Of a stretch of DNA of 49,118 nt, positions 3,711-49,118 are shown piece after piece. The position numbers and the translations under genes were made by a program. This DNA is from Candidatus Gastranaerophilales bacterium. GTDB taxonomy: Bacteria; Cyanobacteriota; Vampirovibrionia; Gastranaerophilales; Gastranaerophilaceae. The notes under the pieces were generated by a model. It searched no databases. It was not told the DNA's origin and was given only the letters and a program-made list of their open reading frames with translations. The stretch spans positions 1 through 49,118 of the forward strand of contig CALUWA010000011.1 of assembly GCA_944324365.1 (NCBI GenBank), written 5' to 3'. Every line of letters starts with the position of its first letter. Position 1 is the stretch's first letter.

Positions 3711-4020
3711 GTTCATTTTTTCTTCTTTGGCATCAAAGAAGAAAAAATGGAACCGTTCACGACCGAAAGAAAGAGTGAAGCCATTTTGCACGTTTCGAGC
3801 AGAGCTCTCAACGGCAAAAGAAGGCAAAAAGAAGAAACAGCAATCAAATTCTGCGCTGCCTGCGGCATCGCTTTGACCAAATGGACGTACGTTCCGTTTG
3901 CTACGCAAACGAAATCGTTAAGCGCTGCTAAGGACAACGCAGCGCATTTTACGTCATTGCGAGCGTAAGCGAAGCAATCCAGGAAACACATTGCAATAGT
4001 GGTAAGATTCCGAAACAAGT
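3711..4020. repeat. Mosaic repeat block A, with purine/pyrimidine hairpin
   Basis: No gene is supported in 3683-4430. The block opens with a perfect 16-bp hairpin (3714-3729 with 3734-3749, loop gcat). A module running 'gaaccgttcacgaccgaaag' to 'caaaagaaggc' follows (3750-3830), and recurs at about 15842-15920, 31967-32045 and, inverted, at 4160-4240. A module at about 3845-3945 containing 'cgctgcctgcggcatcgctt' recurs inverted at 16130-16175 and 32352-32465. The block ends in 'cgtcattgcgagcgtaagcg' (3951-3970) and 'gattccgaaacaagttcgga' (4005-4024). Confidence 0.8.
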
Positions 4021-4033
4021 TCGGAATGACATA

Positions 4034-4366
4034 ATGTTACTCACGTAAGTGAGTCGGGCGAACGTGTACGAAGTGCGATAGTGAGCCCTAAAAGAATTTG
4101 AGCTGAAAGCTCAAATAACATTTAGGCATTGAGCGTCAGCGAAATGCAGGGAACGTTTGCGTGTTTTCTTTTCTTGCCTTCTTTTGCAGTTGAGAGCTTT
4201 GCTCGAAACGTGCAAAATGGCTTCACTCTTTCTTTCGGTCGTGAAAGGTTCGTTTTCTCTGCTTGGTTGTTCGCGTATTACGAGTTCCAGAGCATTGCCC
4301 TTCGGCAACGCTCTTCACTCTACGCTCACAATCCGCTTTGCCTCGCAACCAAAAGAAAAGAAATAG
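4034..4366. repeat. Mosaic repeat block B, inverted copy of 15743-16064
   Basis: About 330 bp that read, as reverse complement, almost the same as 15743-16064. It contains 'cgtaagtgag', the short hairpin 'gagctgaaagctc', the 'cattgagcgtcagcgaaatg' segment and the 'gcattgcccttcggcaacgc' stem-loop. Frames in both directions are open across the block, but I regard these as repeat DNA and not genes. Confidence 0.85.
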
Positions 4367-15724: not shown

Positions 15725-16064
15725 GTTCATTTCTTTCTCTTTATTTGCGAGGCAAAGCGGATTGTGAGCGTAGAGTGAAGAGCGTTGCCGAAGGGCAATG
15801 CTCTGGAACTCGTAATACGCGAACAACCAAGCAGAGAAAGAAATGAACCGTTCACGACCGAAAGAAAGAGTGAAGCCATTTTGCACGTTTCGAGCAGAGC
15901 TCTCAACTGCAAAAGAAGGCAAGAAAGAGAAAGCACGCAAACGTTCCCTGCATTTCGCTGACGCTCAATGCCAAAATGTTATTTGAGCTTTCAGCTCAAA
16001 TTCTTTCTAGGCTCACTATCGCACTTCGTGCACGTTCGCCTGACTCACTTACGTGAGTAACAGA
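15725..16064. repeat. Mosaic repeat block C2, long imperfect palindrome plus module
   Basis: Begins with a perfect 16-bp inverted repeat (15725-15740 with 15833-15848) enclosing 92 nt. Those 92 nt fold further around agagcgttgcc/ggcaatgctct. The following module (15838-16047) is almost identical to 31963-32172 in the same orientation. The span 15743-16064 is the inverted counterpart of 4034-4366. Confidence 0.85.
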
Positions 16065-31903: not shown

Positions 31904-31962
31904 CCAGTAGTTGTTGTGTTGTATGTACTTTCATTTCGTGATATGCAGCGAATTAAACCGTA

Positions 31963-32345
31963 AAGAAATGAACCGTTCACGACCGAAAGAAAGAGTGAAG
32001 CCATTTTGCACGTTTCGAGCAAAGCTCTCAACTGCAAAAGAAGGCAAGAAAGAGAAAACACGCAAACGTTCCCTGCATTTCGCTGACGCTCAATGCCAAA
32101 ATGTTATTTGAGCTTTCAGCTCAAATTCTTTCAAGGCTCACTATCGCACTTCGTGCACGTTCGCCTGACTCACACCAGGCGTCATTGCGAGGAGCAAAGC
32201 GACGAAGCAATCCAGGGAAAGAATATTCAAAAGACATTCGTAAATTGCAACGTTAATAAGATCCTGAAACAAGTTCAGGATGACACCAAGCGTCATTCTG
32301 AGGGCGAAGCCCGAAGAATCTCATTAAACAGAAATCCTTCGCTTC
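31963..32345. repeat. Mosaic repeat block D1
   Basis: 31963-32172 is almost identical to 15838-16047 in direct orientation. The 'cgtcattgcgaggagcaaag' core (32181-32200, through gcaatccag at 32216), 'gatcctgaaacaagttcagg' (32260-32279), and 'cgtcattctgagggcgaagc' (32291-32310) through attaaa follow. No gene is supported from 31904 to 32784. Confidence 0.85.
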
Positions 32346-32351
32346 GCTCGC

Positions 32352-32610
32352 AATGACGATTTATTGCGCTGCGTTGTCCTTAGCAGCGCTTAACGATTTC
32401 GTTTACGCAGCAAACGGAACGTACGTCCATTCGGTCAAAGCGATGCCGCAGGCAGCGCTAAAATCTTTTGCGTGTTTTTCTCTTTTGGTTCATTTTCTCT
32501 TTTTGCTTCGCAATCAAAAAGAGAAAATGAACAATAATTTACATAACTTATGTATGTGGTCGATAGATGCACATAACATGTGTTATGTAACTAATTACTT
32601 GAGATATACA
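32352..32610. repeat. Mosaic repeat block D2 with 18-bp hairpin
   Basis: An inverted copy of the 3845-3945 module (32352-32465), then a perfect 18-bp hairpin (32488-32505 with 32515-32532, loop cttcgcaat). 'acataacttatgtatgtggt' (32543-32562), also found at 16254, follows. Confidence 0.8.
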
Positions 32611-32631
32611 GCAATGACGATTTATTGCGTT

Positions 32632-37888: not shown

Positions 37889-38089
37889 GTTTTATAGTTG
37901 CCGGATTAGTAAATCTGATCTACTTGAATGTAAAAGAACACATGGTTCGATTATTTTGGGACACTTTGTGTTGGGGTCGAAACCTCAATCTACAAACTAT
38001 TTTGTTGAGCTGAAAGTCAACCATACTCAAATAAAAGAATAGTTTGTAAAAATAAAATTTATTGTGACAAAATCTCTATTCAATTATGT

Positions 38090-38104
38090 TAAAATTGGTA
38101 TATG
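38090..38104 (+). promoter_or_regulatory. -10 box directly before the PHP gene (leaderless start)
   Basis: Extended -10 TGTTAAAAT (TAAAAT at 38090-38095), then 6 nt to ATG 38102. The transcript would begin at or next to the start codon; there is no Shine-Dalgarno. The rest of 37889-38089 shows nothing convincing. Confidence 0.55.
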
Positions 38105-38935
38105 AAAGTAAACTTAAAGACAAATTGCAGAATGACTTTCATTGGGTTACATCCAAAAGATTTAGCTTACAAAAAGTTATTGCAAAAGGGCTTGCAAGAC
38201 AGTTTTGGCATTTCGTGCAAACCGGAGGATTTAAATGCCGTTGCAGGGCCGTTTGAATTAAAGCAAATTATTAACAAACTAAAACCGGAACACTATCAAG
38301 TAGGGGAAAAACTCAGAGCTAATTTTCATCTGCATACGATCTCGTCTGATGGCAGATTAACTCCTAAGGAATTTCTAGAACAGTGCACCAGCTACGCAAA
38401 CAGAGTTTTTAAGTCAGGAAAAGCAAATGACGATCTGCCTGCATTTTCTGCCGCAATTACTGATCATGACAGGGTAAAAAGTTCTCAGGAAGTAATTGCA
38501 CTGATATCTCAAGAACCCGGCAAGTATAAAAACTTCAAATTCGTTGCCGGTTGTGAATTTTTGCTGCATGGTTATAAAGAACCTCACCCGGCGTTTGAAG
38601 CTGTTGGTTTGGGTTTTAATCCTTTTGATAAAGCTCTTGAGACGCTGATGAAAGGTTTTGCATCAAACAATCAGGTCTCGGATATTCCCAAAATAAAAAA
38701 TGCCGGCGGAATTTTATCCTGGGCTCATCCCATATTTACCCCGGATAAAATAAATGATGATTTTTTTGAGTTTTTGAAAAAACACGGTATAGACGGAGTG
38801 GAAGGAAATTATCAATATAACAGATGGGATAAAGAATATGTCAATTCGATAAAACCAATGCTGGAAAAACTTATTAAAAAATTCAAAATGTTTGTAACTG
38901 GCGGAACGGACTGCCATACAAAATCCTTGTTCTAG
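38102..38935 (+). CDS. PHP-domain metal-dependent phosphoesterase
   Basis: 277 residues. Metal-binding motifs of the polymerase and histidinol phosphatase (PHP) fold are in order: NFHLHTISSDG (about 76-86), ITDHD (about 120), GCEF (about 152), WAHP (about 208) and GGTDCHTK (about 267-274). The first 70 residues are an N-terminal extension outside the core. These proteins hydrolyse phosphate esters such as nucleoside 3',5'-bisphosphates or histidinol phosphate; the substrate here is unknown. The frame ends 2 residues after the last motif, so the C-terminus is short but all metal ligands are present. Confidence 0.82.
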   Translation: MKVNLKTNCRMTFIGLHPKDLAYKKLLQKGLQDSFGISCKPEDLNAVAGPFELKQIINKLKPEHYQVGEKLRANFHLHTISSDGRLTPKEFLEQCTSYANRVFKSGKANDDLPAFSAAITDHDRVKSSQEVIALISQEPGKYKNFKFVAGCEFLLHGYKEPHPAFEAVGLGFNPFDKALETLMKGFASNNQVSDIPKIKNAGGILSWAHPIFTPDKINDDFFEFLKKHGIDGVEGNYQYNRWDKEYVNSIKPMLEKLIKKFKMFVTGGTDCHTKSLF

Positions 38936-38939
38936 AGCT

Positions 38940-39023
38940 TGTAGGTTGGGCATACATGCCCAACAATTGTAAAATCCTCAAATTGGGGGCGTTGGTTGAG
39001 CATACATGCCCAACGATAAAACT
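38940..39023. repeat. Two copies of a short palindromic repeat
   Basis: 'gttgggcatacatgcccaac' at 38945-38964 and a variant 'gttgagcatacatgcccaac' at 38994-39013. The core ttgggcat-ac-atgcccaa is a perfect inverted repeat in the first copy. It sits between the PHP gene and the defence island. The rest of 38936-39179 is featureless AT-rich DNA. Confidence 0.7.
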
Positions 39024-39179
39024 GAACATTAAAGTACAAATATTTCAAACTGTAAAGAAACACCTTAAATGATTATTTGTAACATTAATAGCGATTATTT
39101 TATTAAAGTATGGAATGCAGATTGACATCTATATTGAGAAAAAGTTATAGATAATTTTGAAAAAATCCCATAAAAAATT

Positions 39180-41786
39180 CTATTTATAAGTATATAAACC
39201 TAAAACGTCATATATTTCATTTACTAAAAGTTTAGGGATTAAGTTATTTTCGTCTATTATTTGAATATTATCGCTAAGCCATTGTAGTGCTTCAGCTTCT
39301 GTCATATTTTCATTATTTAAAATTAGATTACCTTTCTCATCTTTAAGAGTTTCTAACTCAAATATGGTTGAACGAGATAATCCAAGAATAATCATTGAAG
39401 CTTGAGTTTTTTTGTTAATTCCATATTCTAAAAACATTGCTATGTCTTTAATTTGTTCTTTTGGAATATTTTTGTCTATTTGTTCAAAAAAATAGTTCAT
39501 TACATCAACATAACAAGATAGTAATTTAGGAACTTTATATCTTGCATATAAATCTACATCGTTAAAAATCTTTCGTATTGTAGTATTTAAGGTTTCAGAT
39601 ATATTTTTATCTTCAAGGTATTTTCTTCGTTTTTGAATTATTGTAGGTAAATTTTTAAATCTTATCCAACTTGTTGTTATTAATGCAGGATAAATTGCTT
39701 CATATAATCCTGTATTAAAATCACATTTAATCATACGACTTAATATTGATATAAGATTTTGATACATTCCTTCTTCTGACAAATCAGGTATTATACTATT
39801 TATATCATTTGGATTTTCATTGTATTTCTCATGAAATCTATCTAATAGTTTTTGCATAGAATAATGATAGGTCGTAGGGTGATTTTCAAGAATTTCTTTA
39901 GGAATACTTATTTTGCTAGAATATTCTTTTAATACTTGATTTAATTCCTTTATTTGTTCATTCGAACAAGTCGATGCAACCTCATTACATAGTTTTATAT
40001 CATTTGTTTTCAAGTATTCTTGAAAAATATAACCAACAGTTGCTTCAATGCCGTCCTTATTCAGATTGTTTTTAGGAAGTCCAACTTTAAAGGATGCTAT
40101 AATGTCAGGAAGGTTATTTGAAATTATTTTATGGGTTGTACGCTCTACATTCTGTTCAACCATTTCGGTAGGTGCCGAATTCCAATCTACATAATAAATA
40201 TTTCCATTAAATTCTTTTCCTAGGCGTCCAGCTCTCCCAAGAAGATTAAATAAATCTGCACCAGACATGGGTTTATTTTGACCTTTTTTAGGTTCTTTTA
40301 CAAAGATATTTTTGCAAGAGAGATTTACTCCTTCAAGAAGTGTAGATGTACAAATTACATACTTTAAAATTTTTTTATTGAATAAGTTTTCTATTTGTTG
40401 TCTGATAATTTGTGGCATACTTCCGTAATGAAATGCAATTCGTTTTTTTAATAGTTTTATAAGTAAAAAATCCTCATGTACTATTGTTTTACACAAATCT
40501 ATAAGAGCATTAATTTCGACATCATTTGCATATGTATCAGTTTCAAGTTCATAAATGTAATCAGCTATTGATTCCGCTTGAGCCCCACCATCTGCATAAA
40601 TAAGATTTCCATAGTCATTTTTTCCAATATTGTAAGCCCAACAACCTAAAATTTTTGCTTTAGATCTAGGCATAGGATTAGTTAAATTCACTTTAGCAAC
40701 TCTTTGTCTTGTATTATTAAGTTCTAATTCTATCGCTAATTTTTTAGGGCAAACTCTTTGGTCAGAAAGCCTCCTACATATATGGAAATAGTTTCTATCG
40801 ACTGTTTGCAATGTACTTTTTATTTTGACAGCATTGATATATACATCTTCTGGATTTTTAACAAATGGTCCCGCAAAAACAACTCTAGTATTATTATTGC
40901 GTCTTATTATTTCATCTATAACCTGTTGTAATAAAACGCCACGTTCATTATCTCCAACTTTATGAGCTTCATCAATAAAAACTGCTTTAAAATTTTGAGA
41001 TTTATTTCGAGATAGAAATATAGACATCCTTTCTTGTGTAAATACATATATATTTTTACTTTTATTTACTAATGTAGATTTAGCAAATGGCATTGATATA
41101 ATATTTACTTTGGATTTATAATCGTAAAATTCTTCTTTTAAATCTTTCTCAAACTGATTTATTAATGCTCTTGTTGGTACAACAATACCTACATTAATAT
41201 TATTAGAATTATCCAATTCAAGATGATATTTTAACCATTTTTGAACTATAAAAGATTTACCAGCAGAAGTTGGAGCAGATATTGACACTATATTACTTGA
41301 ATTCTCTACACCTTGCCAAAAATCTTTTTGAAACTTATTGCAATGGACAATGTCATTATCCGTTACATAGAATGAATATTCAATATCTCTATTGATATTT
41401 TCTAAAGTAAACTTAAATGGTTGCAAGTAATATACTTTCTCTGGCAATTTATGTAATTTTTGTGCAAGATTAATTGCTTGTTTATTTACAAGCAGTTCCA
41501 ATATCATATATGCTACTTGTTTAAAGATATCATTATCTACGAATTCTATAACATATTGTGCTATACGTTGAGAAATATTTTGCATATTTTCATTTGAGCA
41601 TTGTGCAAAAATTTGTGCTACTTCTAACAGGTATTTTAAGTCTGGGATTTCATTGTGCAAAAATCTTATATTAGGAATTCTTTCTAATTGTTTACAAGCA
41701 GAAATTATAAATAAGTTTTTATATTGTTTTTTAAAATAGTCGTTATTAAAAATTTCAGTGCTTAACTCATCAAAGAAAGTTGTCAT
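39180..41786 (-). CDS. hamB: Hachiman defence helicase HamB
   Basis: Superfamily 2, Ski2-like helicase of 868 residues. Walker A is APTSAGKSF (about 171-179), the DEAH box is FIDEAHKVGD (about 271-280), a second-domain motif is CTSTLLEGVNLSCKN and motif VI is NLLGRAGRLG (about 513-522). The long C-terminal helical part is typical of defence helicases. It overlaps hamA by 4 bp (ATGA) and is the second gene of the pair. In the known Hachiman complex HamB scans DNA and releases the HamA nuclease on sensing damage or phage DNA; applying this here is inference from the gene pair and motifs. Confidence 0.87.
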   Translation of the reverse strand: MTTFFDELSTEIFNNDYFKKQYKNLFIISACKQLERIPNIRFLHNEIPDLKYLLEVAQIFAQCSNENMQNISQRIAQYVIEFVDNDIFKQVAYMILELLVNKQAINLAQKLHKLPEKVYYLQPFKFTLENINRDIEYSFYVTDNDIVHCNKFQKDFWQGVENSSNIVSISAPTSAGKSFIVQKWLKYHLELDNSNNINVGIVVPTRALINQFEKDLKEEFYDYKSKVNIISMPFAKSTLVNKSKNIYVFTQERMSIFLSRNKSQNFKAVFIDEAHKVGDNERGVLLQQVIDEIIRRNNNTRVVFAGPFVKNPEDVYINAVKIKSTLQTVDRNYFHICRRLSDQRVCPKKLAIELELNNTRQRVAKVNLTNPMPRSKAKILGCWAYNIGKNDYGNLIYADGGAQAESIADYIYELETDTYANDVEINALIDLCKTIVHEDFLLIKLLKKRIAFHYGSMPQIIRQQIENLFNKKILKYVICTSTLLEGVNLSCKNIFVKEPKKGQNKPMSGADLFNLLGRAGRLGKEFNGNIYYVDWNSAPTEMVEQNVERTTHKIISNNLPDIIASFKVGLPKNNLNKDGIEATVGYIFQEYLKTNDIKLCNEVASTCSNEQIKELNQVLKEYSSKISIPKEILENHPTTYHYSMQKLLDRFHEKYNENPNDINSIIPDLSEEGMYQNLISILSRMIKCDFNTGLYEAIYPALITTSWIRFKNLPTIIQKRRKYLEDKNISETLNTTIRKIFNDVDLYARYKVPKLLSCYVDVMNYFFEQIDKNIPKEQIKDIAMFLEYGINKKTQASMIILGLSRSTIFELETLKDEKGNLILNNENMTEAEALQWLSDNIQIIDENNLIPKLLVNEIYDVLGLYTYK

Positions 41787-42841
41787 AAAGATTCTCCTCC
41801 CACAATCTTAGTAAATGTTGTGCGAAATTTATCTACACTAGACATTGGAATAAAAAATACATTTATGACAATATTTTCCAGTTTATGTTCATTAACCTTC
41901 TCTGAAAAATTTTGCATCCATTGTGAAGCCGCTTCTGTAGCATTTCTTGCAGTTTTTTCTATATTGTTATAATCGTAAACATTATTATCATTGAAGCCTA
42001 TTAAGCAAATACCTCTAACTTCTGTAAATAATTTGTTTTTTCTATGTTCTGGGTCAAAATAATTTTTCAATTTTTCTTTTAAAGCAATTTCATAATCACT
42101 ATTTCCAAAATCACAGTAGGTATTTAATAGATTTAAGTCTGTTCCGTCATCACTTTTTGTTAAGTACGGTTCAATACTTTCAATACAATTTTTAATAGCA
42201 TCTGATATATTAGCATATATTTTTGCCTCACCATAATGCAAAGCTAATTTCTGTAAATCTTCTGTTAAACCAATATGAACACCATCACTCCCATGTATTG
42301 GCATCTTATTACTTGTTTTAAAGCTCATTTTACATATTGCTTGCGGTAATTTTAAGATTTGTTCTGCTAACAAAAACAATAAAATTTCACCTTCTTCACC
42401 ACTTCTGCGACAATCTTCTGGAGTTATTTCACCTTTATCACATAAAGATTTTTTGTAAATCCAATAATCAATAAGTTTCTTTTTGGCCTCTTCAAATAGT
42501 TTAATAAGTTCTGCAGACTTACCATTGGCTGCATGTATTTTACTTCTTGGAATAACGTAATCGACCAACGAATAAAGCATTCTTTTCGCCAAATCTTCAT
42601 AACCACAATCAGAATTTTGTTGATTAGGCAGTAAAAAATAACAGTGAGTTACCGTTTTTGTATTTTCTATAGTTTTAAAATCTTTTGATTCATGTATTTT
42701 AAAAGCGTTGTCGATACAATTATGCAAGGAGCTTTCATAATCTGATCGTTTTAATAAATCAGGAATATTTTTATTTAAAATATCAAGTTCATTTTCTAAT
42801 TTACTCATTTCACTACTCTTAAATTGTTTTAATTTTATCAT
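41783..42841 (-). CDS. hamA: Hachiman nuclease subunit HamA (DUF1837)
   Basis: 352 residues. The C-terminal half carries a restriction-endonuclease-like active site: Glu in SGEEGEILLF (about 147-150), Asp in HGSDGVHIG (about 187) and the E-x-K of HYGEAKIYAN (about 204-206). This is the DUF1837/HamA pattern. The first 110 residues are helical and less conserved. It is encoded immediately before the helicase with a 4-bp overlap, matching the hamA-hamB order of Hachiman systems. Start ATG 42841 has no clear Shine-Dalgarno; an internal ATG 11 codons later is an alternative. It diverges from the DpnII-type operon across 117 bp. Confidence 0.85.
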   Translation of the reverse strand: MIKLKQFKSSEMSKLENELDILNKNIPDLLKRSDYESSLHNCIDNAFKIHESKDFKTIENTKTVTHCYFLLPNQQNSDCGYEDLAKRMLYSLVDYVIPRSKIHAANGKSAELIKLFEEAKKKLIDYWIYKKSLCDKGEITPEDCRRSGEEGEILLFLLAEQILKLPQAICKMSFKTSNKMPIHGSDGVHIGLTEDLQKLALHYGEAKIYANISDAIKNCIESIEPYLTKSDDGTDLNLLNTYCDFGNSDYEIALKEKLKNYFDPEHRKNKLFTEVRGICLIGFNDNNVYDYNNIEKTARNATEAASQWMQNFSEKVNEHKLENIVINVFFIPMSSVDKFRTTFTKIVGGESL

Positions 42842-42924
42842 AATAATTTATTTACTGCAGTTTTGTTACATAAAAGAATATATTTATAAAAATTTTATGT
42901 TTATACATAACTGTTTATATTGTG

Positions 42925-42952
42925 AACAACATTGTTATTTTTATATTATAAT
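42925..42952 (+). promoter_or_regulatory. Divergent control region: palindrome and -10 box of the DpnII-type operon
   Basis: Perfect short palindrome aacaa-ca-ttgtt (42925-42936), then TATAAT (42947-42952), 6 nt before ATG 42959. The palindrome overlaps the expected -35 region, a position suited to a repressor. No regulator gene is seen in the island. Confidence 0.45.
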
Positions 42953-42958
42953 TAACTC

Positions 42959-43762
42959 ATGCAAAAGTATTATGAAACGGATAATATAACCTTATTTTTA
43001 GGGGATTGTATTGAAATTTTGAACCGTGCAACTCCTCAATCCGTTGATATGATTTTTGCTGATCCTCCTTATATGTTATCTAATGGTGGCATTACATGCC
43101 AATCTGGAGAGGTTGTTTCAGTCAATAAAGGCAAATGGGATGAGAGTAAAGGGATTGATGAGGATTTTGAATTCCACAATAAGTGGATAAAGGTTTGCAA
43201 AAGAGTTTTAAAACCTAATGGAACAATATGGATTTCAGGAACTTATCATTCTATTTATGCTTGTGGGTTTGCCTTACAAAAAAACGGATTTAAAATTTTA
43301 AATGACATTTGTTGGTTTAAACCCAATGCTTCACCCAATATGTCTTGCAGGTATTTTACAGCAAGTCATGAAACACTTTTATGGGCAAAAATAGATAACA
43401 AAGAAAAACATACATTTAATTATGAACTTATGAAAAATGGCAATTGGGGTGAAGATTTTATTAAAAAACCGGAAAAACAAATGCGTTCAGTTTGGGCAAT
43501 AGGAACTCCAAAAAGTTATGAAAAAGAATTCGGCAAGCACCCGACCCAGAAACCTTTAGAATTGTTAAGACGCATAATCCTTGCGTCAACGAACAAAGGC
43601 GATTTAATTCTCGACCCATTCACAGGAAGCTCAACAACTGGTATAATGGCATTAGAGTTAGGCAGGAAATTTATTGGAATAGACTTGGAAAAAGAATACT
43701 TAGACCTTTCTGTTAAAAGGTTTGAACAAGCATTTTCAAAGAAAGATAGAGCATGGCAGTAG
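42959..43762 (+). CDS. dpnA: DpnA-like adenine-specific DNA methyltransferase (beta class)
   Basis: 267 residues. Beta-class order: catalytic motif ADPPYMLS near the N-terminus (about 31-38), a target-recognition stretch, then SAM-binding motif DPFTGSSTTGIMALELGRKFIGID near the C-terminus. In DpnII systems this second methyltransferase also modifies single-stranded GATC, which protects incoming DNA during transformation. It overlaps the next gene by 10 bp. The start follows a -10 box by 6 nt with no ribosome binding site, suggesting a leaderless transcript. GATC specificity is inferred from the neighbours. Confidence 0.87.
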   Translation: MQKYYETDNITLFLGDCIEILNRATPQSVDMIFADPPYMLSNGGITCQSGEVVSVNKGKWDESKGIDEDFEFHNKWIKVCKRVLKPNGTIWISGTYHSIYACGFALQKNGFKILNDICWFKPNASPNMSCRYFTASHETLLWAKIDNKEKHTFNYELMKNGNWGEDFIKKPEKQMRSVWAIGTPKSYEKEFGKHPTQKPLELLRRIILASTNKGDLILDPFTGSSTTGIMALELGRKFIGIDLEKEYLDLSVKRFEQAFSKKDRAWQ

Positions 43763-44595
43763 TTTTAGAACAATTGAAAAATGAAACATATCCGATTGTT
43801 AAATGGGTTGGCGGAAAACGTCAGCTAATGTTTGAACTACTCAAAAATATGCCAATGTCTTACAACAGATATTTTGAACCTTTTATCGGTGGTGGTGCCC
43901 TGTTTTTTGAGTTGCAACCGCAAAATGCCTACATTTCAGATATGAACGAGGAGTTGATAAATTTATATTTAACTGTTCGTGATAATGTTTATGAATTAAT
44001 TTCAGATCTGAATAAGCATGAAGTATCAAAAGAATATTTTTTAGAAATAAGAAATTTAGATCGAACTGAAAAATATTCAACACTTTCAAATGTAGAAAAG
44101 GCAAGTCGTTTTATATACTTAAATAGGACTTGTTTTAACGGATTATACAGAGTAAATTCTCAAGGACAATTTAATGTCCCGTTTGGAAATTATAAAAATC
44201 CAAGAATAGTTGATGCGGATAATTTAATAAACTGTTCAAAATTACTTAAAGATACAGAAATTAAGTGTGCAGATTTTTCAGAGATTTTAGAGAATGTCCA
44301 AAAAGGCGATTTTGTCTATTTTGACCCTCCTTATGTTCCATTAAATGAAACATCTAGTTTTACTTCATATACAAAGGATGGTTTTGATTTAGATATGCAG
44401 TTTAAGCTGAGAGAAGTCTGTGATGAATTGGATTCTAGAGGTGTTCTGTTTATGCTTTCCAATTCTGATACTAATTTAGTAAATGAATTATATACCAATT
44501 ATGAAATAAAAAAAGTTTTTGCTTCTAGAGCAGTAAATGCTAATGCAAATGGTAGAGGCAAAATCACAGAAGTTTTAGTGAGGAATTATGACTAG
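43753..44595 (+). CDS. dpnM: DpnM-like GATC adenine methyltransferase (alpha class, Dam family)
   Basis: 280 residues, D12-class methyltransferase giving N6-methyladenine in GATC. Seen: SAM motif PIVKWVGGKRQLM (about 14-26), YFEPFIGGGALFFEL, the TCFNGLYRVNSQGQFNVPFG block typical of Dam/DpnM, and catalytic FDPPYVPL (about 193-200). It overlaps dpnA by 10 bp and the endonuclease gene by 8 bp. It protects host DNA from the endonuclease encoded next. Confidence 0.93.
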   Translation: MAVVLEQLKNETYPIVKWVGGKRQLMFELLKNMPMSYNRYFEPFIGGGALFFELQPQNAYISDMNEELINLYLTVRDNVYELISDLNKHEVSKEYFLEIRNLDRTEKYSTLSNVEKASRFIYLNRTCFNGLYRVNSQGQFNVPFGNYKNPRIVDADNLINCSKLLKDTEIKCADFSEILENVQKGDFVYFDPPYVPLNETSSFTSYTKDGFDLDMQFKLREVCDELDSRGVLFMLSNSDTNLVNELYTNYEIKKVFASRAVNANANGRGKITEVLVRNYD

Positions 44596-45445
44596 AAATT
44601 TTAAAGAATGGTTATCTACTTTTAGACCTTGTATTGCAGATTATGGCTATTATGCAGATTTTGATAAAATTACTAAGAATATAGATAACTTAAAAGTTGA
44701 GTTAAATATTTTAAACTCTTTAGTTGGTTCAAAAAATATTGAACAAGATTTTGAAAATATTATAAAAAAATATCCGGAAACTTTAAAATGTATTCCTTTA
44801 CTTTTAGCTGTTAGGGCTAATGAAATATATACAATAGATAAGGATGGTGAGTATAATTTTTCATTCAAGAAAATGAATTATTCTATTGAAGAATACAAAA
44901 TGTTTATGAGAAAAACAAAGCTTTTTGACTTGCTACAAAACCATATTGTAAATAATTTAGTAGATTATGCAACAGGTGTTGAAACAGGTTTAGATTCTAA
45001 TGCTCGTAAAAATCGTGGCGGGCATTTAATGGAAAATCTTGTTGAAAGTTATATTCAAAAAGCAGGTTTTATAAAGGGACAAAATTACTTTAAAGAAATG
45101 TATATCCATGAAATTGAGCAAAAATGGAATGTAAATTTATCAGCGATTTCTAATCAAGGTAAAATGGAAAAACGTTTTGATTTTGTAATAAAAACAGATA
45201 AACAAATTTATGTAATTGAAACCAATTTCTATGCTAGTGGAGGCTCAAAATTAAATGAAACAGCAAGAAGTTATAAAACACTAGCTCAAGAAGTTGCAAC
45301 AATAGATGGGGTAACATTTATCTGGTTCACTGATGGTTGTGGCTGGAATAGTGCTAAAAACAATCTTGAAGAAACCTTTGATGTTTTGGATACTCTTTAT
45401 AACATTCAAGATTTAGAAAATAATATTTTACTAAATTTAAAATAA
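44588..45445 (+). CDS. dpnB: DpnII/MboI-type restriction endonuclease (GATC)
   Basis: 285 residues, close to DpnII length. The family core is clear: NARKNRGGHLMENLVESYIQ, then KRFDFVIKTDKQIYVIETNFYASGGSKLNETARSY, in which D-x(n)-E-x-N forms the PD-(D/E)xK-like site, and FIWFTDGCGW. It cuts unmethylated GATC. GAGGAAT lies 5 nt before the ATG. Order here is dpnA-dpnM-dpnB, whereas the pneumococcal system is dpnM-dpnA-dpnB. Confidence 0.92.
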   Translation: MTRNFKEWLSTFRPCIADYGYYADFDKITKNIDNLKVELNILNSLVGSKNIEQDFENIIKKYPETLKCIPLLLAVRANEIYTIDKDGEYNFSFKKMNYSIEEYKMFMRKTKLFDLLQNHIVNNLVDYATGVETGLDSNARKNRGGHLMENLVESYIQKAGFIKGQNYFKEMYIHEIEQKWNVNLSAISNQGKMEKRFDFVIKTDKQIYVIETNFYASGGSKLNETARSYKTLAQEVATIDGVTFIWFTDGCGWNSAKNNLEETFDVLDTLYNIQDLENNILLNLK

Positions 45446-45457
45446 GTAAGGTCTTTA

Positions 45458-46249
45458 ATGAAAAACGCAATTGACACAACATTTGATTTTACATCTGATA
45501 CTCCTCATTATTGGGATAATTTTTGGCAAAATTGCGATGGGCTTGGCTGTGGAAGTGCAGATCCTGATACAAAAAGTCCTACTCTTAGGAAATACCATAA
45601 AATATTATGGAGTAAGTCATTACCTAACGGTGAATTTTTAGAATTGAAAGAGGGTAAAACTACTAATGAATATTTAAGATGGAAAGACTTTGTTTTTGGG
45701 AGTGATTCCATTATCAATATTTATCTACATAATATTAGACTAAAGGCTTTTATTGAAAAAGTTAAGATAGAAATAGAAAAAACTCAAAATTATAAAGTTT
45801 TTCTTGAAAACTATTTAAAAACCGCTTATACAATTGGTGGATGTATGATTTTCCCAAAAAGAGAACGTGACAATTCTATTAATTGCCAAAGAGGAATAAA
45901 TCGAGTTATCCAAGACCGATTTGATTTAACTTTAGAATGTATTAGAAGATATTACACTGGAGACTCAAATAGCCCATTAACAAATGTTTTTTCGAAGAAC
46001 TCTCAGTTTTTTGATTTATTCATAGATTTTAAAGGTTTTGTCAATTTCTTTTTATTACAAGATTTAGTAGCAGAAGATTATTCTGAAATAAAGCTGTTTT
46101 TGCAGAATAATTTGGCATTTACAGAAGACCCTAGACCTCAAACGGTAGAAGAATGGTTTATTTTATATAACAATCAAATGAATTTTCTAGCAAAAAGAAA
46201 TGAGCGTATTTCAAAGATAAGGTTTGATCATGAAAATTGTATTAAGTAG
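45458..46249 (+). CDS. DUF6994-family protein, unknown function, in the restriction operon
   Basis: 263 residues resembling the DUF6994 family. It begins with FDFTSDTPHYWD, followed by the family-like DPDTKSPTLRKYHKILWSKSLPNGE block, a GGCMIFPKRERDNSINCQRGINRVIQDRFDLTLECIRRYY core and FKGFVNFFLLQDLV. There is no signal peptide or membrane segment, and no catalytic motif I can name. It starts 12 nt after the endonuclease stop with AAGG upstream, and overlaps the Nmad3 gene by 20 bp, so it belongs to the same transcript. A role in defence is suggested only by position. Confidence 0.75.
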   Translation: MKNAIDTTFDFTSDTPHYWDNFWQNCDGLGCGSADPDTKSPTLRKYHKILWSKSLPNGEFLELKEGKTTNEYLRWKDFVFGSDSIINIYLHNIRLKAFIEKVKIEIEKTQNYKVFLENYLKTAYTIGGCMIFPKRERDNSINCQRGINRVIQDRFDLTLECIRRYYTGDSNSPLTNVFSKNSQFFDLFIDFKGFVNFFLLQDLVAEDYSEIKLFLQNNLAFTEDPRPQTVEEWFILYNNQMNFLAKRNERISKIRFDHENCIK

Positions 46250-47045
46250 AAAAGGATTTGATAGTGCATCTGGTGGATGTCCAAGTTTTATTATTGGAAA
46301 TAAATTGGTTTCTTTGCCAATACCCGATGAACATACAAAATTAAAATATAGCAATGTTGAAATTTATAATTATAATCTTGGTAAACTTTTTGAAAAAAGT
46401 GGAATTAAACCAAAATTAAACGGCAAAGAAATTTCGACTTGTCATCTAGACCCTGATATCGAAAATGGTTTGTTCGGACAGTGTTCGACTGCGGCACAGC
46501 ATTTAATGAATAATAATGTGGAAGTCGGTGATTTATTGTTATTCTTCGGCTGGTTTAGAGATTTTGATATTAAAAATTATAAATTTAGCAAATTAGATAT
46601 CGCAGGAAAACATTGTATATATGCTTATTTTAAAATCGGAAGAATTCTGGATTTAAACAAATCAGCAGAAAAACAAGAGGCATTAAAGCTTTCAGCAACT
46701 CATCCGCATATTGCTTATGACTCGAATGAATACAATAAAACTAATTTGTTATATGTCGCTGCTCCAATCTTAACTACAAATAGCAAAATTAGGGGGTGTG
46801 GGAGATTAAAATATTCAGAACAAACAACATTAACAAAACCCAATGAAAACAAATCAATTTGGCAGCTTCCGAAATGCTTTCTAAATACCAATATGACATA
46901 TCACACAAATAAAAATTGTTGGTCTGAATTGAATAATAATTTTTGTCAATTAAAAAGTGCATGTCGAGGACAAGAATTTATTATAAATGAAAATAAGGAT
47001 ATTGAAAAATGGGCAATTGAATTGATTAGAAATAATATTGATTAA
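46230..47045 (+). CDS. Nucleotide-modification-associated domain 3 (Nmad3) protein
   Basis: 271 residues with the N-terminal mark KIVLSRKGFDSASGGCPS, then HLDPDIENGLFGQCSTAAQHL and DLLLFFGWFRDFD, the pattern of the Nmad3 family. That family was named from its association with nucleotide or DNA-base modification genes in phages and bacteria; its activity is not established to my knowledge. ATG 46230 is preceded by AAGG and lies inside the DUF6994 gene. A Cys/Trp-containing C-terminal part (CWSELNNNFCQLKSACRG) is of unknown role. It converges on the DUF2971 gene with a 4-bp overlap. Confidence 0.75.
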   Translation: MKIVLSRKGFDSASGGCPSFIIGNKLVSLPIPDEHTKLKYSNVEIYNYNLGKLFEKSGIKPKLNGKEISTCHLDPDIENGLFGQCSTAAQHLMNNNVEVGDLLLFFGWFRDFDIKNYKFSKLDIAGKHCIYAYFKIGRILDLNKSAEKQEALKLSATHPHIAYDSNEYNKTNLLYVAAPILTTNSKIRGCGRLKYSEQTTLTKPNENKSIWQLPKCFLNTNMTYHTNKNCWSELNNNFCQLKSACRGQEFIINENKDIEKWAIELIRNNID

Positions 47046-48118
47046 ACTCTATAACTCTTGCATTCTTTCGGAGTCATTTTGTATTCAGTATTAGTTATAT
47101 CAATATCCATTATATATGTTTTTATTTTTAATTTTCTTGCAATTTTAATTAAGTAATTTTTATTAGCATTTTTCATCTTGGCTCCAAGATATATTGCTGT
47201 TGGACGTTGTTTTATCATGGGGTAAGCCTCACAATGTGATATAATACGCCATTCTTTTTCATATTCCCAATCCTTAGACTTATGTATAAGAACTTTATAA
47301 ATAGCTAAGTCGTCATCTTTTGGAATAAAAACCTTAACAGGAGCATTCATTAATATTATTTGTGACCAGTATGAAGAAAAAAAGTCCTTTGCATTAAATC
47401 TAGTCTTTGTATAAATTACAGGATATAATAATTCATAATGTCGAAATACACATTCATTTTTACAATTTAAACAAGGAGTAAAATAATCTTGAAACTCATA
47501 CTCAAGCACGAATCCCTTATGTGAATCTGCATAATGAGCCCACATAGGCGGAGAAGATGGAGTTTCGGAAAAACAGGCTATATGAGGATATGTTCTTAGA
47601 AATTCTTTTGCTTGTTTAATAGCTTGCAATATATGGAGTCTGAATCGTGGAATCCTTTTTTGAATAAAATTGGAATAAGTAGTATCTTTCATTGCTAGGA
47701 GTGCATTTATCTTTTTTAGATTTTTTTTAGGAATAATCTCTACTAACTTAGGATTATAGTCTAACCATTTTTGAAGCTTCCAACGATTTTGTGGATTGAT
47801 AATATCATTAATTATAGCATCAGGATCCACTTGAATTAAACAATCAAAGGGGTCATTAAAATCTGCAGGTTTGGAAGATACAACTAAATCTTTTTTAAGA
47901 GCATCTACAGTATAGTCGCTAAAGTTACGATATCTAAATAAACGTTTTGGTTTCAGTTCTTGGACTTTTTGACAAAAATCTTTTATTTTTGCATTATTTT
48001 CATCAGGACTATCATAGTTCCTAATAACAGTACTGTCCAATATTTCTTTAAATCTATCACGTACAGAGTTTTCTTCCATATTCGTATTATATATCAGACA
48101 ATTATTTAATACTTGCAT
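47042..48118 (-). CDS. DUF2971 protein, probable defence-associated
   Basis: 358 residues from ATG 48118, or 345 from ATG 48079. DUF2971 marks: LFRYRNFSDYTVDALKKDL, SSKPADFNDPFDC, ACFSETPSSPPMWAHYADSHKGFVLEYEF and KDWEYEKEWRII. A Cys pair (CLNCKNEC) lies in the middle. The family is common in defence and mobile regions; biochemical activity is not established. The shorter start is favoured because a minus-strand TATAAT (48086-48091) lies between the two ATGs, 6 nt before 48079. Confidence 0.75.
   Translation of the reverse strand: MQVLNNCLIYNTNMEENSVRDRFKEILDSTVIRNYDSPDENNAKIKDFCQKVQELKPKRLFRYRNFSDYTVDALKKDLVVSSKPADFNDPFDCLIQVDPDAIINDIINPQNRWKLQKWLDYNPKLVEIIPKKNLKKINALLAMKDTTYSNFIQKRIPRFRLHILQAIKQAKEFLRTYPHIACFSETPSSPPMWAHYADSHKGFVLEYEFQDYFTPCLNCKNECVFRHYELLYPVIYTKTRFNAKDFFSSYWSQIILMNAPVKVFIPKDDDLAIYKVLIHKSKDWEYEKEWRIISHCEAYPMIKQRPTAIYLGAKMKNANKNYLIKIARKLKIKTYIMDIDITNTEYKMTPKECKSYRV
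48086..48091 (-). promoter_or_regulatory. -10 box 6 nt before ATG 48079 of the DUF2971 gene
   Basis: TATAAT on the minus strand, followed by acgaat and then ATG; no Shine-Dalgarno. This spacing matches 38102 and 42959. Confidence 0.45.
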
Positions 48119-48165
48119 TATTTTGATATTTAAGTGATGAATACGACACCTAAAAAGGAGGTCGT

Positions 48166-48399
48166 ATGAGTAAAAGCAAGAAATACAAGATTAAACAAAA
48201 AGATTTTAGGAAGTTAGAAAAACTAGCTGAGCGGATTTATAATACAGCTACTGTAATTGATTATTTTTGCAGGACGCAGCAAGAAATTGAAGAGCTGTAT
48301 AATCTTACTCCAATCGTCGAAAATTTAAGGCGAGATACTGATACTGTGAACGCTTATTTTATAAATTACCCGGAAGGTAATATTCAAAAAAGATTTTAA
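48166..48399 (+). CDS. Small hypothetical protein
   Basis: 77 residues, strongly basic N-terminus (SKSKKYKIKQKDFRKLEK) and a mostly helical body, no membrane segment. A near-consensus Shine-Dalgarno (AAAAAGGAGGT) lies 5 nt before the ATG, so it is probably a real gene. No family recognised. The basic N-terminus could bind nucleic acid; this is inference. Confidence 0.6.
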   Translation: MSKSKKYKIKQKDFRKLEKLAERIYNTATVIDYFCRTQQEIEELYNLTPIVENLRRDTDTVNAYFINYPEGNIQKRF

Positions 48400-48624
48400 T
48401 ACCGTTCAAAAAGTGTTCAAAAAGCGCTGTATTGAATTTTATACTCATAAGAGATAGTAAAGCATATCTTACTTAAAAAGTTTGCTTAGAAAGCCTGTTA
48501 TCCGTTTTTATATAATTGCTCATTACAAAAATACTTTTTATGTCTAAATGATACGTTTTGTGTGTATTTACTTGATATTTAACCCATTGAGAGTGATATA
48601 TGTCATTACTGGCAAGAGGTAGCA
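48400..48624. other. AT-rich spacer with a tandem 11-bp repeat
   Basis: Contains two adjacent copies of 'gttcaaaaag' (48404-48426). No gene or clear promoter is seen. Confidence 0.4.
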
Positions 48625-48840
48625 ATGATTGAATTAGGCAAAAAGTACAAACTTAAAAAGATTAGAGGTTTTGAAAGCTCTGATAACGAGTACTACAAAG
48701 TAATTGGATTCTATAACTTCGACACTGTAATTTGTGAAAACGCCTACGGAGAAAGGTTTGTATTTATGAAAGAGTTTTTAATAGACCCACAAAAGCCTGA
48801 TGATATTTATTCAGATTTGATACTTGAAAGGAAAGAATGA
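48625..48840 (+). CDS. Small hypothetical protein
   Basis: 71 residues, mixed charged and aromatic, possibly a small beta-rich domain (KYKLKKIRGF, YYKVIGFYNFDTVICE). AGAGGT lies about 5 nt before the ATG. The stop overlaps the next gene (ATGATGA). It belongs to a row of at least three tiny overlapping genes running off the right edge, as in phage or plasmid accessory modules. Confidence 0.6.
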   Translation: MIELGKKYKLKKIRGFESSDNEYYKVIGFYNFDTVICENAYGERFVFMKEFLIDPQKPDDIYSDLILERKE

Positions 48841-49040
48841 TGACAGAAAAAGACTATGCACTTTATGGCACAAAGGTTTTGAATTTAAAGACTCAAGAAA
48901 TCGGCTTGCTAATTTGTATTTGGAAAAACAAGTTTGCAGATTCAGAAATAGATTATGCAACTTGCGTTGATAAACAAGGCAAAAGATATAATATAGAGCT
49001 TGATAACATACGAGGGTTTGAAGATGATTTTGAAAAATAA
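48837..49040 (+). CDS. Small hypothetical protein
   Basis: 67 residues; ALYGTKVLNLKTQEIGLLI and YATCVDKQGKRYNIELDNI suggest a small beta-barrel-like fold similar in size to the preceding protein. It overlaps the previous gene by 4 bp and the following frame by 17 bp, which supports coupled translation. No family recognised. Confidence 0.58.
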   Translation: MMTEKDYALYGTKVLNLKTQEIGLLICIWKNKFADSEIDYATCVDKQGKRYNIELDNIRGFEDDFEK

Positions 49041-49118
49041 ACTAACAAGAGAAACCTTAGAAATAACTTATCCTGAATTTAGAGAAAAGTTTGTAAAAGA
49101 AATCAGGATAGCTTTTGA
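49024..49118 (+). CDS. Start of a further gene, cut by the window edge
   Basis: ATG 49024 opens a frame (MILKNKLTRETLEITYPEFR...) that has no stop to the end of the window. GAGGG lies about 8 nt upstream and the frame overlaps the preceding gene. Partial; no function visible. Confidence 0.5.
   Translation, partial: MILKNKLTRETLEITYPEFREKFVKEIRIAF

What the first reader, a model, noticed from the sequence alone, without database searches (positions are those of the whole stretch)
39180..42841. Hachiman system with intact nuclease and helicase motifs
HamA shows the E, D and E-x-K residues of its nuclease site, and HamB has Walker A, DEAH and motif VI. The genes overlap by 4 bp in the expected order. 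Hachiman in this group extends its known range, if confirmed.
Basis: partly seen in the sequence, partly recalled or inferred. Interest (0 to 1): 0.5.

Follow-up and report, generated by a model that had tools for sequence, protein, structure and literature searches.

The report
Ordinary Hachiman defence pair, swapped helicase
A non-photosynthetic relative of cyanobacteria carries an intact copy of the known two-gene anti-virus system Hachiman; the system itself is ordinary, but close relatives show that its helicase half has been exchanged for another version while the nuclease half stayed the same.

Summary
The finding is right. The minus strand holds hamA (41783-42841; true start probably 42808) and hamB (39180-41786), overlapping by 4 bp. 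PADLOC, Pfam, PDB sequence profiles and fold comparison all give HamA and HamB.

The host is a Melainabacteria genome. HamA occurs in 23 of 386 sampled genomes of the phylum, near the >5% quoted for prokaryotes, so "extends the known range" is a small point.

Beyond the finding: four close copies in four genera share hamA (dS 0.16-0.39), but hamB falls into two alleles (dS 1.08-1.38 between, 0.33-0.48 within) with a sharp breakpoint (0 of 2000 shuffles reach it). Recombination exchanged most of hamB under a conserved hamA. The pair borders a DpnII restriction-modification block; another genus has this block at 95% DNA identity with a very different Hachiman in the same slot.

Verdict: new member of a known kind; the hamB exchange is the part worth following.

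The parts
41783..42808 (-). hamA, nuclease effector (probable start 42808, 341 aa; longest ORF starts 42841, 352 aa)
   Evidence: PADLOC HamA 1.1e-72, Pfam HamA 1.4e-45, VIA-align 8zue_A Z 16.1 and 8vx9_A Z 11.2; start inferred from three relatives with stops in the first 11 codons
42386..42388 (-). codon of conserved Glu (E141 of 341, E152 of 352)
   Evidence: invariant column in A1; kept in 19 of 19 HamAs aligned
42284..42286 (-). codon of catalytic Asp (D175 of 341, D186 of 352)
42221..42229 (-). codons of E-x-K (E194-A-K196 of 341, E205-A-K207 of 352)
39180..41786 (-). hamB, Ski2-like SF2 helicase (868 aa); its ATG overlaps the hamA stop by 4 bp
   Evidence: PADLOC HamB1 1.1e-212; PDB profile 9wh1_B 1.1e-124; Foldseek best hit 8vx9_B 1.7e-17
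41253..41276 (-). Walker A, APTSAGKS (171-178)
40962..40973 (-). DEAH box (272-275)
40224..40238 (-). helicase motif VI region, GRAGR (517-521)
39395..41673 (-). exchanged segment of hamB: allele I (window, L026) against allele II (L028, L025)
   Evidence: MaxChi breakpoints near 41673 and 39395; dS per gene
42959..45445 (+). adjacent DpnII-type restriction-modification genes (two adenine methyltransferases and DpnII), divergent from hamA; a neighbouring defence system, not part of Hachiman
45458..48118 (.). companions of the R-M block: DUF6994 (+), Nmad3 (+), DUF2971/PDC-S31 (-)
   Evidence: same block 95% identical in L041
39051..39084 (+). 34-bp intergenic element at the left edge of the Hachiman slot, exact in G063 on the same side of its different Hachiman

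Best explanation
This is a canonical two-gene Hachiman system. By analogy with the solved E. coli systems, HamB, a Ski2/Hel308-like DNA helicase, holds the PD-(D/E)XK-type nuclease HamA inactive while it surveys intact DNA. When a free single-stranded 3' end or other damaged DNA made by a replicating phage enters HamB, ATP hydrolysis moves the helicase and switches on HamA, which degrades phage and host DNA (abortive infection). Shown here: both genes, all motifs, family membership, intact reading frames, movement between genera, and recombinational replacement of most of hamB among close relatives. Inferred: the biochemical steps, and that the system is active in this host.
For: HMM membership; solved-structure profiles 9wh1_A 5e-12, 8vx9_A 3.3e-11, 9wh1_B 1.1e-124; fold matches; catalytic E/D/E/K kept in 19 of 19 aligned HamAs, 5 of the 24 HamA places having been left out; dN/dS about 0.09-0.13 in hamA and 0.07-0.15 in hamB (ratios of the values). 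hamAB is 92% identical in DNA to a copy in another genus where gyrA is 81.6%, so it moved horizontally. Mechanism from PMC12278908 (abstract, passages and Discussion read).
Against: No activity data. HamA is only 13% identical to 8vx9_A over the fold alignment, so details of regulation may differ. Plain Foldseek of the HamA model gave no match at E<=0.001. hamB is interrupted in two relatives (G309 by an in-frame stop, G057 by a frame change), so the system is not always kept.
Confidence: 0.94

Rival explanations
1. The pair is another nuclease-helicase system (AbpAB-type or the PADLOC candidate PDC-M23) that merely resembles Hachiman.
For: HamB also hits PDC-M23B (1.1e-43) and the chain 8zue_B, named Anti-bacteriophage protein B; HamA matches 9wh1_A, named Anti-bacteriophage protein A/HamA C-terminal domain-containing.
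Against: Hachiman models score far higher over nearly the full length of both proteins. AbpA carries an extra N-terminal nuclease and an inactive HamA domain (PMC12278908 Discussion); this HamA has no such extension and an intact site. That paper treats AbpAB as a Hachiman variant anyway.
Confidence: 0.03
2. The genes are a decayed or silent remnant.
For: hamB is interrupted in L025 and L027.
Against: Both window genes are full length with all motifs; dN/dS is well below 1.
Confidence: 0.05
3. The hamB split into two alleles reflects fast divergence of hamB, not recombination.
For: Sensors can evolve quickly (general knowledge).
Against: dS jumps as well as dN (0.16 in hamA against 1.08 in hamB for L026/L028); the change is sharp at both ends; the other listed pairs have about equal HamA and HamB identity (83/81, 78/81, 65/65, 60/64, 46/46).
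Confidence: 0.04
4. The hamB chimera is an assembly artefact of metagenome bins.
For: At least the named relative L048, which has the contig length of G034 contig 1, is a metagenome-assembled genome.
Against: Each allele occurs in two separate genomes of different genera with the same junction.
Confidence: 0.04

Closest known systems
Hachiman of E. coli (8VX9/8VXA/8VXY; Tuck et al. 2024, PMC12278908)
   Same: Two genes, HamA DUF1837 nuclease with D-E-x-K, HamB Ski2-like helicase; fold matches
   Different: HamB 868 aa against 1174 aa; low identity (13-15% in the fold alignments)
AbpAB of E. coli (chains 8ZUE, 9WH1)
   Same: HamA-like C-terminal domain and a Ski2-like helicase of about the same size (853 aa in 9wh1; 9wh1_B is the best sequence-profile match)
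   Different: AbpA has an extra N-terminal nuclease and, per PMC12278908, an inactive HamA site; the window HamA has neither
HamMAB nuclease-protease Hachiman (PMC12799240, passages read)
   Same: HamA and HamB core
   Different: There a protease is fused to HamA, the D-GExK motif is lost in virtually all fusions and a second nuclease gene precedes it; none of this in the window
Defence hot spot R1H of Dolosigranulum pigrum (PMC8547433, passages read)
   Same: A chromosomal slot in which R-M systems and Hachiman vary between strains
   Different: Here the variation crosses genera, and the hamB allele itself is replaced under a conserved hamA

Membership tests
Hachiman | HamA (PF08878/DUF1837) protein above curated cut-off | tested here: met
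   156.4 bits against cut-off 25; PADLOC 1.1e-72
Hachiman | HamB Ski2-like SF2 helicase, full-length match | tested here: met
   PADLOC HamB1 residues 7-863 of 868, 1.1e-212; Foldseek top hits 8vx9_B, 8zue_B, 8vxa_A, then Hel308/Pol theta
Hachiman | Intact nuclease site (E, D, E-x-K) in HamA | tested here: met
Hachiman | Intact helicase motifs in HamB | tested here: met
Hachiman | hamA-hamB order, adjacent and co-directional | tested here: met
Hachiman | HamA fold of the solved complexes | tested here: met
   VIA-align Z 16.1 (8zue_A, 267 residues, 4.2 A) and 11.2 (8vx9_A, 236 residues, 5.2 A), first unrelated row 4.9; plain Foldseek gave nothing at E<=0.001
Hachiman | PADLOC type I or type II | tested here: inconclusive
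   HamA models tie (HamA2 1.1e-72, HamA1 2.5e-72); HamB favours HamB1 (1.1e-212 against 1.6e-195)
Hachiman | Complex formation, damage-triggered DNA degradation, phage protection | not testable with these tools
   needs bench work
AbpAB | Extra N-terminal nuclease domain fused to the HamA domain | tested here: not met
   352-aa protein; the only Pfam match above its cut-off is HamA at residues 82-333

The most novel reading that the evidence does not exclude
hamB is an exchangeable sensor allele. In this bacterial family recombination replaces nearly the whole helicase (about codons 38-797) while hamA and the two hamB ends are kept, so one nuclease is paired with two sensor types about 25% different in protein. 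The exchange may be selected by phage inhibitors of HamB or by different triggering DNA structures, as allele swapping is in other immune loci.
Probability: 0.3. Interest if true: 0.45.

Novelty: new member of a known kind. Interest (0 to 1): 0.22.

Why it matters
The system itself adds one more Hachiman, in a class (Melainabacteria) for which the held papers name none. What could matter is the natural experiment around it: four nearly identical HamAs with two HamB alleles give ready-made pairs for asking what HamB senses, which parts touch HamA, and which phage inhibitors act on it.

Tried and rejected
Plain Foldseek of the HamA model found nothing significant; the second look with VIA-align found the solved HamAs. 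Viral contigs gave no relative of HamB or of HamA, phage records none of HamB, plasmids only HamB relatives under 60% identity, 30 records. The genome collection scan gave a single named relative. Rfam found nothing in the window.

I considered a special link between Hachiman and DpnII. Of 386 genomes, 23 have HamA and 39 have DpnII, 7 have both (hypergeometric 0.0046, no correction for kinship); in 4 of the 7 (G000, G063, G240, G250) the two are neighbours, in the other 3 they lie on different contigs. I fetched 20 of the other DpnII loci; the slot beside the first methyltransferase can be read in 15. I tested one or two proteins in 9 of those 15: Lamassu in 3, DndB/DpdB-like in 2, an OLD/AAA protein in 1, no clear defence match in 3. 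So this is a general defence slot, and I rejected a specific coupling.

I followed the 34-bp element as a possible recombination site: 27 copies in 9 of 10 genomes, none for the reversed control, but neighbours include ordinary metabolic genes and its arms are poorly palindromic (4 to 8 of 13 in the six copies compared). Left open. An earlier pattern had the wrong spacing and is void; the gyrA comparison had two sequences in the wrong orientation and was redone.

Full report
Observation. The motifs are present: HamA E152, D186, E205-x-K207; HamB Walker A 171-178, DEAH 272-275, GRAGR 517-521. In the three closest relatives the first 11 codons of the 352-aa HamA reading contain in-frame stops, and their ORFs are 341 aa; the true start is therefore probably Met12 at 42808.

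Identity. PADLOC: HamA 1.1e-72, HamB 1.1e-212; Pfam HamA 156.4 bits. NCBIfam has no match for HamA and only generic helicases far below cut-off for HamB. A profile of 16 HamAs finds the solved proteins 9wh1_A (5e-12) and 8vx9_A (3.3e-11), where HamA alone found none at 0.01; a profile of 11 HamBs finds 9wh1_B (1.1e-124) first. These two alignments were chosen sets: they left out interrupted hamBs and several divergent pairs. AlphaFold models (mean pLDDT 71.9 and 71.5) match solved HamA-type chains (Z 16.1, 11.2, 8.5; next row 4.9) and HamB chains. Plain Foldseek with HamA found nothing at E<=0.001.

Host and range. The genome G000 has 2.05 Mb in 36 contigs; the window is one whole contig. The one named relative is 'uncultured Candidatus Melainabacteria bacterium' (L048, HamB 94%); its contig length (424800) equals that of G034 contig 1, a genome of the window's family. 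The order name Gastranaerophilales is my inference. In the phylum sample 23 of 386 genomes have HamA at E<=0.001, 22 over the cut-off, near the >5% of prokaryotic genomes quoted in PMC12278908 (passage). No held paper names Hachiman together with Melainabacteria or Gastranaerophil-. A rumen survey that includes 77 Cyanobacteriota genomes mentions Hachiman once in passing in the main text (PMC11834463, passages). The own genome has a second, divergent HamA-HamB pair on contig C4.

Mechanism. I rely on PMC12278908 (abstract, passages, Discussion): HamB surveys DNA and restrains HamA; a free ssDNA end triggers ATP hydrolysis and activation of the nuclease; phage and host DNA are degraded. For the window this is inference from intact motifs and fold.

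Horizontal movement. hamAB is 92.2% identical in DNA to G034 over 39204-42866 and about 80% to G240 and G309 taken as a whole, all in other genera; gyrA between G000 and these genomes is 81.6, 76.2 and 78.8%. The R-M block 42940-49118 is 95.2% identical to G063, whose gyrA is 83.1%.

Exchange of hamB. Among the four close copies (window/G000, L026/G034, L028/G240, L025/G309) dS in hamA is 0.16-0.39 for all six pairs. In hamB it is 0.33 and 0.48 within the types {window, L026} and {L028, L025}, but 1.08-1.38 between them. Site patterns in hamB favour this grouping 371 to 17 and 12; in hamA they do not (5 against 16 and 3). MaxChi for L026 against L028 is 200.6, against at most 21.2 in 2000 shuffles, with breakpoints near 41673 and 39395; mismatches are 4.2% before, about 25% inside, 2.4% after. 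The shuffles ignore codon structure and rate differences along the gene, so the dS contrast is the better argument. In the other pairs listed HamA and HamB identity agree within 5 points. Both alleles keep all helicase motifs; one member (L025) has an in-frame stop. The exchange is well supported; that it changes sensing is a guess. I found no report of such a swap in two listings, which were not exhaustive.

Neighbourhood. Next to hamA, divergently, lies a DpnII-type R-M block with DUF6994, Nmad3 and DUF2971 proteins. In L041 (G063) the same block borders a different Hachiman (HamA model match only 7.8e-6, helicase HamB1 2.4e-62), in L040 a third type (HamA 5.5e-106), in L028 the window's type. 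On the other side a 34-bp stretch (39051-39084) is identical left of the slot in the window and in L041. So the Hachiman in this slot seems to have been replaced as a unit. Other DpnII loci of the family hold Lamassu or other systems there; a comparable hot spot is known in Dolosigranulum pigrum (PMC8547433, passages).

Verdict. A real, intact, ordinary Hachiman; new member of a known kind. The hamB exchange is the part worth keeping.

Noticed in passing
window 39051-39084 and about 37929-37962: A 34-bp element (TGTAAARRAACAC-N6-TGATT-N2-TTGT-N-ACA) recurs a few times per genome in 9 of 10 genomes of the family and never in the reversed control; it lies at edges of mobile segments, sometimes as pairs about 1.1 kb apart. 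Function unknown.
   Followed up: partly
window 37996-38951: A gene with PHP-like motifs by eye (no Pfam match) is 98.5% identical in DNA to a copy in another genus (L079) whose other genes do not match the window: a separate mobile segment.
   Followed up: partly
window 31962-32622 (also 15837-16048, 3742-4255): An interspersed repeat with dozens of copies at 74-99% identity across the window's own genome; no Rfam match.
   Followed up: no
L045 9044-12089: Second Hachiman pair in the same genome, divergent: HamA best 5.6e-11, helicase 689 aa HamB1 2e-93, near other DNA methyltransferase genes.
   Followed up: partly
L046 2943-7172: In an 8.3-Mb genome of the same phylum the HamA and HamB matches fall in one 1409-aa ORF, a likely natural fusion.
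   Followed up: no
L025 5236-7830 and L027 7593-10201: hamB interrupted (in-frame stop; frame change) while hamA is intact; L034 and L038 helicases also look split.
   Followed up: no
L041 3601-5814: An Mrr-nuclease/nSTAND3 protein sits between the 34-bp element and the divergent Hachiman of G063.
   Followed up: no
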